A DNA stretch of 64,000 bases from Streptomyces sp. SPB162. GTDB lineage: Bacteria > Actinomycetota > Actinomycetes > Streptomycetales > Streptomycetaceae. The position numbers were made by a program, and so were the translations under genes. The stretch is from NCBI RefSeq assembly GCF_029504575.1, contig NZ_JAQFII010000001.1, forward strand, positions 5,277,001 through 5,341,000, given 5' to 3'. Each line of letters opens with the position of its first letter. Within the stretch, counting starts at the first letter, position 1. Of the stretch, positions 16,985 through 20,441 are shown piece by piece. The notes beneath the pieces were generated by a model. That model searched no databases, had not been told where the DNA came from, and saw only the letters and a list, made by a program, of their open reading frames with translations.

Positions 16985-17206
16985 GTGAGCACACCGTTCG
17001 AGGATCCGGACGCCGCCTACCTGGCGCTGGTCAACGACGAGGGCCAGTACTCGGTGTGGCCCGCCGCCAACGACGTGCCCGCCGGCTGGCGGACCGTCCT
17101 GGGGGAGAGCGGCAGGCAGGCCTGCCTCGACCACATCGAGGCGCACTGGACGGACATGCGGCCGGCGAGCCTACGCGCCGCCATGGGCGGGCAGCCGGGC
17201 GAGTGA
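16985..17206 (+). CDS. MbtH-like protein
   Basis: 73 residues with the MbtH signature NDEGQYSVWPAANDVPAGWR and SGRQACLDHIEAHWTDMRP. MbtH-like proteins bind and activate NRPS adenylation domains. The only adenylation domain in the window that needs one is the A-PCP protein at 36446, about 19 kb away. GTG at 16985 with GAGAGGACGAGCA upstream. Its 3' end overlaps the convergent metallopeptidase gene by 36 bp. Confidence 0.92.
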   Translation: MSTPFEDPDAAYLALVNDEGQYSVWPAANDVPAGWRTVLGESGRQACLDHIEAHWTDMRPASLRAAMGGQPGE

Positions 17207-18079
17207 CGCGCGGGCGTAGACCACCTGGTACCCCGGCAGGATGAAGAGCGACTCGCGGAACGACGTGGTGGACTCGGGCATCAACTCCGGTACCGAGTCC
17301 GGCCGGTCGTACATCAGCGCCCGTTCCAGCCGGAAGAAGTACAGGTTGTGGGCGTCCACCCGGCGCTGGTAGGACCACCAGGCGCGGCACTCCTCGGGGC
17401 TGCCGCGCTCCCGCAGGTACGCGGCGACCAGGCGTTCCTCCAGGCAGTGTGCCAACCGTTCCGAGGCGAACTGCGACCGGACGGAGCGGCCGGGGCGGGC
17501 TCGTTCGTACAGGCAGTGGCCCAGTTCGTGGGCGATGCCGGCCAGCGCGTCGATCGTGGGGGCGTCCTGGCCCAGCACGATCGCGTTGCCGCGGTCGTCG
17601 TCGACCGTCCGGAACGGCGTGCCGGCCTCTTGGAGGGACGACTCGGCCAGGATCCGCGCCACCTCCGCGCGCCGGTGCCGCAGCTCCGGCAGCCCGGCGA
17701 GGATCTCGGCCGCGGGCGCGTGGGTGGGGTGGCGCAGGATGACGCTGTCGGCCGGGATGGGCAGCGGCAGCTCGGCGAGGAACGTCAGCATCGAGCGGCG
17801 CAGCGGCAGGACGTCCGCGTACTCGGGGCGCGCCATCACCTGCCGGACCTGCCGGTGGGTGCTGTCGATCAGCCGCCGCAGCCACGGGGTCCCGCGGAGC
17901 CCGGCCAGCGCTGCCCGGCGGCCCCGCAGCACGCTCTCGATCAGCTCGCCGCGCCCCAGGACCGCCTCCTTCTGCAGCAGGCGGCGCTGGTCCCGGTACG
18001 CGGCCACGGCGGCGGCGTCGCCCGGGAAGACGGCGTCGGCGGGTACGCGTGCGTCAACCGCGGTGGTCCGGAGGTCCAT
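17171..18079 (-). CDS. Zinc metallopeptidase (HELGH), putative RiPP protease
   Basis: 302 residues, no signal peptide or membrane segment. The zinc motif IAHELGHCLYE (near residue 190) is followed 19-27 residues later by several Glu (ASERLAHCLEERL) that could be the third ligand, as in gluzincin/M3-like peptidases. Flanking regions are helical and do not match a family I can name. Its ATG follows the TGA of the methylase directly, and both are downstream of the Asn-rich precursor. The simplest role is cleavage of the modified precursor. A role in general peptide turnover cannot be excluded. Confidence 0.65.
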   Translation of the reverse strand: MDLRTTAVDARVPADAVFPGDAAAVAAYRDQRRLLQKEAVLGRGELIESVLRGRRAALAGLRGTPWLRRLIDSTHRQVRQVMARPEYADVLPLRRSMLTFLAELPLPIPADSVILRHPTHAPAAEILAGLPELRHRRAEVARILAESSLQEAGTPFRTVDDDRGNAIVLGQDAPTIDALAGIAHELGHCLYERARPGRSVRSQFASERLAHCLEERLVAAYLRERGSPEECRAWWSYQRRVDAHNLYFFRLERALMYDRPDSVPELMPESTTSFRESLFILPGYQVVYARASLARLPAHGGA

Positions 18080-18847
18080 TCACCAGGGGGCCGGTTCGGC
18101 CGGCCCCGGCTGGAACGGTGTCAGCAGGGCCAGGACGGCGCGGTCGACACGGCGCGGGACGGCGGCCGGGAGGTACAGCGGGCCCGCGAAGAAGACGTTG
18201 GCGAGCAGCTCGCCCAGCGAGCCGACCCGTCCCCAGCCCACGGCGGCGGCTCCGGCGACGGCCTGGCCCTGGCCCTGCTCGACCAGGCAGGCGGGGTGCT
18301 CGGCGTCGTAGGCGCGCAGCAGCAGCCGCTGGAGCAGCTCCGCCCGGTCCGCGCCGCCGACGTGGTAGACGAGGGTGTTGAACGCGGGGTTCGGCAGCTG
18401 CTGGAAGAGCAGCAGGCGGTTGGCGTCGACGACGAGGGTGCCGCGTTCCAGCGGGTCGATCCCCAGGTTGTTGACCGTGGTGGTGAAGGTGGAGACGCCC
18501 GGCTCGACGTGCAGGGCCAACTCAGCCGCGTCGGCCAGCCGCTGGAGCTGCTGGACGACCGTGACGCCGAGGCGGGGGTCGCCGGGCAGCAGGACGGCCA
18601 CGTCGCCGTCGGACCGCGCCCGGTCCAGGATGCGCGCGAGCAGCCGCCCGAAGGGGTCGTGGTCGCGGGCGCCGGCGCGGTGGAGCGCGTGCAGCGATTC
18701 GGTGGGCCGGTCCGTCAGCTCGCGGACGTCGACGGCCGGGTCGACCAGGTGCAGCACCGCTTCGGCCTCCCGCAACTGGCGCAGTCCGGCGAGGGTGAGC
18801 TGCTCGATCCCCTGGACGCCGAGCCCGACGACCCTGATGCGATTCAT
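18080..18847 (-). CDS. Tetrapyrrole-methylase-fold SAM methyltransferase, borosin-type
   Basis: 255 residues. The N-terminal IRVVGLGVQGIEQLTLAGLR, then LVDPAVDV, GDPRLGV and EPGVSTFTTTVNNLGIDPLE reproduce the block order of borosin alpha-N-methyltransferases such as OphMA. Those enzymes methylate backbone amides of a precursor peptide. Here the enzyme is not fused to its substrate, so this would be a split borosin. The catalytic Tyr/Arg segment of OphMA (residues 63-76) aligns by eye with LHALHRAGARDHDPF, where the Tyr positions are His, His and Phe. The gene lies 89 bp after the precursor and abuts the peptidase. Corrin or diphthine methylation is less likely given the neighbours. Confidence 0.7.
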   Translation of the reverse strand: MNRIRVVGLGVQGIEQLTLAGLRQLREAEAVLHLVDPAVDVRELTDRPTESLHALHRAGARDHDPFGRLLARILDRARSDGDVAVLLPGDPRLGVTVVQQLQRLADAAELALHVEPGVSTFTTTVNNLGIDPLERGTLVVDANRLLLFQQLPNPAFNTLVYHVGGADRAELLQRLLLRAYDAEHPACLVEQGQGQAVAGAAAVGWGRVGSLGELLANVFFAGPLYLPAAVPRRVDRAVLALLTPFQPGPAEPAPW

Positions 18848-18896
18848 CGCGGTTCCTTCCCGGTGGCGCGGCGGTGTGGCGGTGGTGCGCGTGCGC

Positions 18897-18929
18897 GGGG
18901 CGGTGCGGTCGTCAGTGCCGCACCGCCCC
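18897..18929 (-). terminator. Hairpin between precursor and methylase genes
   Basis: A perfect 12-bp stem (GGGGCGGTGCGG with CCGCACCGCCCC) and a 9-nt loop, 7 nt after the precursor stop on the - strand. There is no U-run. It could act as an attenuator or as a 3' stabiliser, giving more precursor than enzyme mRNA. Confidence 0.6.
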
Positions 18930-18936
18930 GGCGGTG

Positions 18937-19176
18937 TCACGCGTCGCCGTTGTCCGCGTCGATGTCCTCGAGGATCTGCGCGAGGTCCGCCGGGACGACG
19001 CTCTGCAGGCGAGGGGTGTTGTTGTTGCTGCTGTTGTTCGTGTTGTCGTCGTTCATGGCGACGGCGTTGTCCGCGAAGTTCGTGGTCGCGTTGTTGTTCA
19101 CGTTCGCGTTCGCGTTGTTGTTGGAGTTGTTGTTGCTGTTGTTCGAGTCGTTGTTGTTCGACGAGTTGTTGGACAC
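18937..19176 (-). CDS. Asn-rich putative RiPP precursor peptide
   Basis: 79 residues from GTG 19176, which follows GGAGGACTC with ideal spacing. Residues 2-53 contain 27 Asn, with Ser, Ala, Thr and Asp filling most other positions and runs of two or three Asn (SNNSSNNNDSNNSNNNS). The last 25 residues are quite different: an amphipathic acidic helix (VVPADLAQILEDIDADNGDA) after a TPR junction. The Asn codons are AAC, so the bias is not a base-composition effect. The small size, two-part layout and the downstream methyltransferase and peptidase suggest a precursor with the Asn tract as core and the C-terminal helix as recognition sequence. No similar known precursor comes to mind. Confidence 0.7.
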   Translation of the reverse strand: MSNNSSNNNDSNNSNNNSNNNANANVNNNATTNFADNAVAMNDDNTNNSSNNNTPRLQSVVPADLAQILEDIDADNGDA

Positions 19177-19487
19177 GAGTCCTCCTGCAGCAGTGCTGTG
19201 GGTCGGGCGTGGTGCCCGGTCTGCCCGCGTCGAGCAGCACACCCATGAACCGACATCGCGCTAAAGCCGGGTATGCGCGGGGTTTGTGCCGCGGCCCCCG
19301 GCCCGGCAGGTCGCCGCGGCGCCATGACAAGCGCATAGCAACCCCCGGCAGGACACCCCCGCGGATGGCAGGGAACGGGCTCTTCGCCGCGCCGCGCGCG
19401 GTCGGTTGCCCCGCGTGCCCCGCACCACCCTTGAGCGGCACCGATCACCCCGGAAGGCTTCGCAGCAGCCGATCAGGGAGGCTCATC
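19177..19487. other. Divergent intergenic region, precursor and prenyl-synthase-like genes
   Basis: About 310 bp with no convincing gene. It must hold the promoters for the - strand RiPP operon and the + strand gene at 19488. Nothing matching the AGGGG(G)T promoter layout of the PKS cluster is visible. Confidence 0.6.
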
Positions 19488-20441
19488 ATGACCACGCATT
19501 CTCTGCCGCCGACGACACTCGTCCCCGGGCAACTGCGTACCGCGCTGCTCGACCAGGTGGAGGAGCGGCTGCGCGGCCTGCTGGCCGGGGAGTTCGACCG
19601 CTGGCACGCGGTGAACCCCAGGGCGGCCGGCCTGGTCGGCTCGATCACCGAACTGGTGCGTGCGGGTGGCGACCGGGTCCGCCCCGCCGTCTGCGTCACC
19701 GGCTACCTCGCCGCGGGCGGCGACCCCACCTCGAGGGCGATCGTCGACGCCGCGGCCGCGCTGGAGCTGCTCGACACCTGCTTCCTCATCCGCAGCGACA
19801 TCCGCGACAACGCCCCGCTGCGCCACGGCATCCCCACCCTGCACGTCAGCCACGCCGCCGAGCACGAGCGCAGCGGCTGGCGCGGGGAGTCGCGCCGCTT
19901 CGGCGAGGGCACCGCGGTACTCGCGGGCGACCTGGCGCTCGCCTACGCCGACCGGCTCGCGTCCGGACTGCCCGCCGCCGCGTGGCAGCTGTGGGACGAA
20001 CTGCGCACCGAGCGCGTCATCGGCGCCCACACCGACGCCGCCTGCGCGACCGAGTACCTCGACGACCCGTGGCCCGGCCGCTGCATCGCCGGCTGCGAGC
20101 GGGGCTGCGGAGCGGGCTGGTACGCCCTGCACCACCCGCTGCTGCTCGGGGCCGCGCTGGCCGGCCGGCCGGACCTCACCGCCCCGTACCGGGAGTACGC
20201 CCGCCCCCTGCACGCCGCCTGGCGGCTGCGCGGGTTCCTGGAGGGCGGGCCCGGCTACGACTGGGACGCGCAGATGCTGCGCGAGGTGCTGCTGGGCACG
20301 GAGGAGCGGGACACCGCGGAGCGGATCATCTCCCAGCTCGTCGCCCGCGCCGACCGCGTCGTCGACGCCGCGCCGCTCGCCCCCGGCTGGCGCGACGAAC
20401 TGGCCGCGTTCGCGATCCGCATCTCCGGCCTGTCCGACTGA
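19488..20441 (+). CDS. Polyprenyl-synthase-like protein with degenerate metal motifs
   Basis: 317 residues with the fold landmarks of trans-isoprenyl diphosphate synthases: GGDRVRPAVCVTGYLAAGG (the GGKRxRP region) and LELLDTCFLIRSDIRDNAPL followed by RHGIPTLH. The first Asp-rich motif (normally DDxxD) reads SDIRD, and the second is absent: the matching helix reads RGFLEGGPGYDWD. Metal-dependent prenyl transfer therefore looks impaired. ATG 19488 follows AGGGAGGCTCATC. It is divergent from the RiPP operon, so a link to it is possible but unproven; a terpene-cyclase-like or scaffold role is an alternative. Confidence 0.65.
   Translation: MTTHSLPPTTLVPGQLRTALLDQVEERLRGLLAGEFDRWHAVNPRAAGLVGSITELVRAGGDRVRPAVCVTGYLAAGGDPTSRAIVDAAAALELLDTCFLIRSDIRDNAPLRHGIPTLHVSHAAEHERSGWRGESRRFGEGTAVLAGDLALAYADRLASGLPAAAWQLWDELRTERVIGAHTDAACATEYLDDPWPGRCIAGCERGCGAGWYALHHPLLLGAALAGRPDLTAPYREYARPLHAAWRLRGFLEGGPGYDWDAQMLREVLLGTEERDTAERIISQLVARADRVVDAAPLAPGWRDELAAFAIRISGLSD

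What the first reader, a model, noticed from the sequence alone, without database searches (positions are those of the whole stretch)
17171..19176. Candidate new RiPP system: Asn-rich precursor, split borosin-type methylase, HELGH peptidase
Seen: a - strand operon of a 79-residue peptide with 27 Asn in residues 2-53 and a distinct acidic helical tail, then a tetrapyrrole-methylase-fold enzyme with the borosin block order, then a zinc-peptidase-like protein. Known: borosin methylases of this fold N-methylate peptide backbones, and split forms exist in bacteria. Inference: the Asn/Ser tract is a core that becomes multiply methylated, and the C-terminal helix is the recognition sequence, which would reverse the usual leader-core order. 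I know of no poly-Asn borosin.
Basis: partly seen in the sequence, partly recalled or inferred. Interest (0 to 1): 0.93.

Follow-up and report, generated by a model that had tools for sequence, protein, structure and literature searches.

The report
Borosin-like peptide methylation cassette, new motif
A Streptomyces gene trio encodes a short asparagine-rich peptide, a diverged relative of the enzymes that methylate peptide backbones, and a peptidase-like protein; relatives in other bacteria suggest that a 15-residue motif in the peptide, not its asparagine run, is the conserved working part.

Summary
In detail: a - strand operon of a 79-residue peptide (27 Asn in residues 2-53), a 255-residue borosin-fold methylase and a 302-residue HELGH peptidase-like protein. 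The methylase is closest to borosin methyltransferases by sequence and predicted fold, but in its clade a key active-site Arg of borosins is Asp (19 of 20 rows; Arg in 13 of 13 classic rows), and neither peptide nor enzyme shows a borosin binding domain. The conserved part of the peptide is the C-terminal motif PRLQSVVPADLAQIL, not the Asn tract. The motif lies upstream of the methylase in 10 of 11 loci outside the genus, over four phyla (the eleventh lacks upstream DNA), and in 0 of 15 control loci. It is repeated twice in Biostraticola and three times in Serratia, with little else in the Serratia precursor. A same-genus relative without the methylase has a Thr/Gly tract instead of Asn. HELGH homologues sit in the Nostoc and a Silvanigrellales cluster. 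Best reading: a RiPP-type cassette whose motif carries recognition and probably the modified core, the Asn tract being a variable spacer. Chemistry, product and activity are untested.

The parts
18937..19176 (-). precursor-like peptide, 79 aa, GTG start
19018..19173 (-). Asn-rich low-complexity tract (residues 2-53, 27 of 52 Asn); variable in length and letters between sister species
18970..19014 (-). conserved 15-residue motif PRLQSVVPADLAQIL (residues 55-69); upstream of the clade's methylases across phyla
19181..19186 (-). ribosome-binding site AGGAGG of the peptide gene
18893..18932 (-). G+C-rich hairpin just after the peptide stop codon, possible attenuator that favours precursor over enzyme expression (inference)
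   Evidence: fold z -1.79 for 93 nt, 8 of 200 shuffles as good; the same hairpin in 2 of 3 sister loci, re-paired differently in the third
18080..18847 (-). borosin-like TP-methylase-fold methyltransferase, 255 aa
17171..18079 (-). HELGH zinc-peptidase-like protein (M3/ACE-like model), 302 aa; homologues in the Nostoc and Silvanigrellales clusters
16985..17206 (+). context: MbtH-like protein, convergent neighbour
19488..20441 (+). context: polyprenyl-synthetase-like protein, divergent neighbour; close orthologues (78-100% identity) in exactly the five genomes of the genus that carry the motif peptide, more distant relatives (45-53%) in 13 others of 35

Best explanation
It is a RiPP-type precursor/maturase cassette. 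SHOWN: a short peptide with the motif P-R-[LCF]-x-x-x-x-P-x-[DN]-[LI]-x-x-[ILVF]-[LIM] (Nostoc has I for the first P) is encoded just upstream of a methyltransferase that forms its own clade beside the borosin methyltransferases. In Streptomyces, Nostoc and a Silvanigrellales bacterium the same cluster also encodes a related HELGH protein of about 300-350 residues. INFERRED: the methyltransferase binds the motif directly, without a borosin binding domain, and methylates the peptide within or beside it. The motif therefore carries recognition and probably the core. The HELGH protein then cuts the precursor and frees the product from the Asn-rich tract. The Asn/Ser tract (Thr/Gly or Asp/Ser in relatives) is a disordered spacer of drifting sequence. 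The site of methylation (backbone N or a side chain) is open, because an Arg important in borosins is Asp in this clade.
Against: No modification has been measured. The motif survives in G029, which has no methylase hit at E 1e-12, so it cannot serve the methylase alone; its Pro is lost there (VTQADL), which fits relaxed constraint but is one case. With a weight matrix from Streptomyces sequences only (window, L042, P0018), the motif is top in L007 (12.1 against 11.8), L008 and L010 (2.8 against 1.2), second in L011, and not top in L012 and L013. The six first distant motifs were seen by eye before the matrix was built. L009's methylase lies 171 bases from its contig end, and the motif search found nothing in that MAG (1 of 8 genomes without a hit at E 0.05). 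HELGH homologues are absent from most distant clusters, which have an ABC-like and a radical SAM protein instead. The third gene of Serratia and Biostraticola has HEALHH but no detectable relation to P0003. I saw no exporter beside the Streptomyces trio, but did not search the cluster for one.
Confidence: 0.6

Rival explanations
1. One reading: the Asn/Ser tract is the core and becomes multiply methylated, the C-terminal helix is only the recognition sequence (a follower).
For: Within the genus all 4 methylase-bearing loci have an Asn-rich tract, and the one relative without the methylase has none. A tail that is invariant while the rest varies is what a recognition sequence looks like. P0018 has Asn tracts on both sides of the motif.
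Against: Elsewhere the same methylase clade pairs with precursors without such a tract. In Serratia there is nothing but eight N-terminal residues, motif copies and 6-residue linkers. A probable methylase-bearing metagenomic contig (P0005 and P0017 share source and contig length) has a short Asp/Ser/Asn tract instead. Tract length and letters drift.
Confidence: 0.2
2. Same cassette (not exclusive with the best reading), but the methylase has changed chemistry: it methylates a side chain (for example the conserved Asn/Asp, Arg or Cys of the motif) rather than backbone nitrogens.
For: SonM-R67 equivalent is Arg in 13 of 13 classic rows and Asp in 19 of 20 clade rows; position 144 is Arg in 20 of 20 clade rows and in no classic row; position 162 is His in 19 of 20 against Gln in 13 of 13; the Y93 equivalent is Pro or Ala in 18 of 20. 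Window-type enzymes also lack the loop that aligns with the SonM top clamp. One passage of PMC8429565 says that SonM-R67A was not active in the kinetic assay.
Against: Alignment-based; active-site geometry was not measured. The Tyr71 equivalent is kept in 16 of 20 clade rows. Another passage of the same paper says that all single mutants kept measurable activity and only Y58F/Y71F did not.
Confidence: 0.45
3. Not a RiPP: the peptide is an adaptor or regulatory partner of the two enzymes or of the surrounding PKS/NRPS cluster, and is not modified.
For: The trio sits inside a large cluster with LuxR-type regulators, AfsA-like and PKS genes; the peptide and HELGH protein persist without the methylase in G029.
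Against: In other phyla the precursor-methylase pair stands with MFS or ABC-like proteins, radical SAM proteins or 2OG oxygenases, typical maturation and export genes, and motif copies are repeated as in multi-core precursors.
Confidence: 0.12
4. The HELGH protein is not a peptidase but an alpha-ketoglutarate-dependent HEXXH hydroxylase like those of other RiPP clusters (PMC12636437, passages).
For: HEXXH proteins in RiPP clusters can be hydroxylases, and one there hydroxylated Asn in a variant peptide (PMC12636437, passages); the window's peptide is rich in Asn.
Confidence: 0.15

Closest known systems
Split borosins (type IV, SonM/SonA) and fused borosins (OphMA)
   Same: TP-methylase-fold methyltransferase, in split forms next to its own small precursor gene; nearest solved structures by sequence and fold.
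   Different: No borosin binding domain seen; the motif is C-terminal, central or repeated; an important Arg is Asp and other active-site positions differ; separate branch 100/99 in the tree.
Type 0 borosins (core N-terminal of a fused methyltransferase; PMC11395268, part 1 of 5 of the text and passages seen)
   Same: Shows that a core before the methyltransferase is not unheard of among borosins.
   Different: Those are fused proteins; here the peptide is separate. The original report was not read.
M3/M2 zinc peptidases (oligoendopeptidase F, ACE)
   Different: About half the length; no Pfam or NCBIfam assignment above cut-off; activity unknown.
alpha-KG HEXXH peptide hydroxylases (PflC/PosC; PMC12636437, passages seen)
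   Same: HEXXH proteins coded beside RiPP precursors.
   Different: No family match to P0003.

Membership tests
Borosin alpha-N-methyltransferases | TP-methylase fold closest to borosin methyltransferases | tested here: met
Borosin alpha-N-methyltransferases | active-site set SonM Y58, R67, Y71 (importance from PMC8429565 passages) | tested here: not met
   R67 equivalent is Asp62 and Y71 equivalent is Phe66 in the window protein. Y58 equivalent is His56, read by eye from the stretches printed (Tyr in the 4 classic and 2 other clade rows printed there); the two positions that I counted for it, were the wrong columns
Borosin alpha-N-methyltransferases | helical borosin binding domain of about 50 residues in the precursor or fused to the enzyme | tested here: not met
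   by anatomy: Asn tract plus a 26-residue tail, and a 255-residue enzyme without extension; the Serratia precursor is motif copies only. A home-made profile from four control ORFs found none of 13 motif loci, but it is insensitive: 3 of the 10 other control loci above threshold. Pfam LigA matched 2 of 3 control precursors weakly (E 0.013, 0.022) and none of 4 motif precursors
Borosin alpha-N-methyltransferases | methyl groups on backbone nitrogens of the core | not testable with these tools
   needs mass spectrometry
RiPP biosynthetic cluster | small precursor gene conserved beside a modifying enzyme | tested here: met
RiPP biosynthetic cluster | separable recognition sequence and core | tested here: inconclusive
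   conserved motif could be either or both; repeats favour both in one
RiPP biosynthetic cluster | processing peptidase and exporter | tested here: inconclusive
   peptidase-like protein present; MFS or ABC-like proteins in relatives; no exporter seen beside the window's trio, not searched for in the whole cluster
M3-like zinc peptidase | HExxH plus downstream Glu in a PepF/ACE-type fold | tested here: met
   H184 E185 H188 E207 invariant in 24 rows; fold by VIA-align, not supported by Foldseek at E 0.001; the role of E207 as zinc ligand is recalled, not computed
M3-like zinc peptidase | proteolytic activity | not testable with these tools
   -
alpha-KG HEXXH peptide hydroxylase | match to the family model or fold | tested here: inconclusive
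   no NCBIfam match; not listed, which does not exclude it

The most novel reading that the evidence does not exclude
A distinct class of peptide methylation beside borosins, spread over five phyla: a motif of 15 to 18 residues, single or in tandem, is at once recognition site and core; the enzyme needs no leader domain and uses an inverted active site (Arg to Asp, with a new Arg at position 144) for a methylation other than the borosin one. The Streptomyces version adds a replaceable low-complexity tract and a dedicated M3-like peptidase, and is built into a PKS/NRPS cluster, possibly as its peptide signal.
Probability: 0.35. Interest if true: 0.85.

Novelty: new variant of a known kind. Interest (0 to 1): 0.66.

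Why it matters
If right, it gives a way to find a further group of methylated peptides that borosin mining keyed to the binding domain may miss (one motif plus one methyltransferase clade), and an enzyme guided by a short tag, which would be handy for N- or side-chain methylation of chosen peptides. The Arg/Asp exchange offers a natural test of how borosin methyltransferases activate their substrate. It also warns that the eye-catching Asn run is probably not the product.

Tried and rejected
Rejected or led nowhere. (1) Asn tract as chance or frameshift artefact: rejected by codon-position G+C and conservation of the reading frame. (2) Simple microsatellite: TRF finds only short imperfect arrays, best score 68; the tract is repeat-like but codes through. 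(3) Viral contigs: no relative. (4) Plasmids: P0003 none, P0002 two Serratia records; with the Serratia methylase four more records, all below 60% identity, used as controls. (5) E. coli genomes: nothing like the Serratia operon. (6) P0003 family against PDB sequences: one chance-level match; P0046: none. (7) P0003 and the Serratia HEALHH protein are not detectably related. (8) Motif search beyond the five genomes of the genus gave seven weak hits, E 0.001-0.007, in 394 genomes, taken as chance and not followed. (9) The first tree held three control rows read from the wrong strand (c_L024, c_L025, c_L026) and c_L028, not checked; it was rebuilt with the three corrected and c_L028 left out. (10) One search tested the polyprenyl-synthetase-like gene in a wrong frame; repeated. 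(11) G696 locus L072, the only other hit of 396 phylum genomes at E 1e-18 (4.8e-19), has no motif and counts among the controls. (12) Distribution of the methylase clade elsewhere is thin: 3 of 58 genomes in the phylum of G400, 2 of 92 in that of G398, 1 of 118 in the family of G394, each count including the starting genomes. The alpha-KG HEXXH family did not appear.

Literature. No paper found that describes this motif or an Asn-rich borosin-like precursor, by searches. The library holds only openly licensed papers. The reports that define types V-X (Imani 2022, not held; Cho 2022) and type 0 were not read, so a prior description there is possible.

Full report
OBSERVATION. The peptide gene (18937-19176, -) has a strong ribosome-binding site, G+C of 0.97 at third codon positions and 27 Asn among residues 2-53, all Asn codons AAC. 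The methylase (18080-18847) and the third gene (17171-18079) follow; the last two abut. Collinear relatives are Streptomyces fildesensis and Streptomyces sp. H39-S7. The trio lies inside a long PKS/NRPS-type cluster with MbtH, LuxR-type, AfsA-like, 4'-phosphopantetheinyl transferase and polyketide synthase genes.

PRECURSORS. In the genus, 4 of 35 genomes have the methylase, and all 4 have the Asn-rich gene upstream. Between these four the 26-residue tail is identical in all six pairs, with 1-3 synonymous and no other codon changes in 25 codons, while the tract keeps 40-54 of 55-58 aligned positions and changes length. The genome-contig scan gave 10 loci of the methylase, 8 of them outside Streptomyces. 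The ORFs upstream of these are unlike the window's peptide except for one 15-residue motif, first seen by eye. Weights built without the tested group rank that motif first in the whole locus for L007, L008, L010, L011, L012 and L013. Three more loci came from Chlamydiota (L071) and two Serratia plasmids, and the genome of L014 shows motif and methylase start on another contig end. That makes 10 of 11 methylase loci outside the genus. The eleventh, L009, has only 171 bases of upstream DNA, and its MAG gave no motif hit. The ten are not independent lineages: Biostraticola and the two Serratia records are close, as are L012 with L013 and L011 with L071; I count about six. By record title they are Cyanobacteriota, Pseudomonadota, Chlamydiota and Bdellovibrionota; L012, titled Betaproteobacteria, turned up among the phylum of the Silvanigrella genome. 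In 15 control loci with classic or other methylases the best score was 11.6, against 27.6 or more for the motif copies scored with the full matrix, which held most of them. With Streptomyces-only weights the result is weaker (see evidence against).

WHAT THE MOTIF IS. The Serratia liquefaciens plasmid precursor consists of eight residues and three copies of HPRLQAAAPMNLAKVIGGF joined by 6-residue linkers; Biostraticola has two copies in 97 residues. In Serratia there is no room for a separate leader or a separate long core, so the motif most likely contains what is modified. In P0018 (Streptomyces sp. NPDC046876; search E 9.3, accepted for the identical PRLQSVVPADL stretch) the motif stands between two Asn tracts. 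P0017 keeps the tail, one letter changed near the end, and has a short Asp/Ser/Asn tract. In G029 the tract is Thr/Gly, the motif reads PRLQSVTQADLAQVL, the peptidase-like gene follows directly, and there is no methylase hit at E 1e-12 in the genome. The Asn tract is therefore replaceable, which argues against its being the conserved core.

OTHER CLUSTER TYPES. Seven Chlamydiota, Bdellovibrionota and other MAG loci carry a related ABC-like protein after the methylase and six of these a radical SAM protein. Pfam support: the ABC match is below cut-off in the three tested; the radical SAM match is above it in L010 and L012 and below it in L009. Serratia liquefaciens and Biostraticola share a HEALHH protein and a 2OG-Fe(II) oxygenase; Serratia liquefaciens has an MFS gene beside them. 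Nostoc has an MFS protein, a methyltransferase-like protein and a 2OG oxygenase besides the HELGH protein. Exporters and varied tailoring enzymes are what RiPP clusters look like.

VERDICT. A real, conserved cassette. It works like a split borosin system in layout and fold, but two borosin features were tested and not met (active-site set, binding domain), so I do not file it as a borosin. Whether it methylates backbone nitrogen is the open question. Prior description cannot be excluded, because the papers that define split borosin types were not read here.

Noticed in passing
L042:9088-9363 (G029): Homologous peptide with a Thr/Gly tract instead of Asn, followed directly by the HELGH gene, no methylase hit in the genome; the contig length equals that of Streptomyces sp. 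NBC_01262 (P0023).
   Followed up: partly
L085 (Serratia liquefaciens plasmid p2-125, 105890-118384): Conjugative plasmid carries a three-repeat precursor, methylase, HEALHH protein, 2OG oxygenase and MFS transporter: a possible new plasmid-borne peptide cluster.
   Followed up: partly
L086 (Serratia marcescens plasmid pE17): Apparently decayed copy: the start codon used in L085 is not a start here, and the methylase match covers only 54% of the query in two pieces.
   Followed up: no
L009-L013, L071: Methylase-ABC-like-radical SAM operons, with the precursor upstream in all but L009 (no upstream DNA), in Chlamydiota, Bdellovibrionota and a MAG titled Betaproteobacteria.
   Followed up: partly
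P0018 (Streptomyces sp. NPDC046876): Peptide with the motif in the middle and Asn tracts on both sides; neighbourhood not seen.
   Followed up: no
proteins P0024-P0044: Further proteins 57-73% identical to P0003 (P0035, a fragment, 85%), many named as Streptomyces; whether motif peptides or methylases lie beside them is unknown.
   Followed up: no
window 27620-64000: Large PKS cluster with AfsA-like, amidase, thioesterase and O-methyltransferase genes; product not identified.
   Followed up: no
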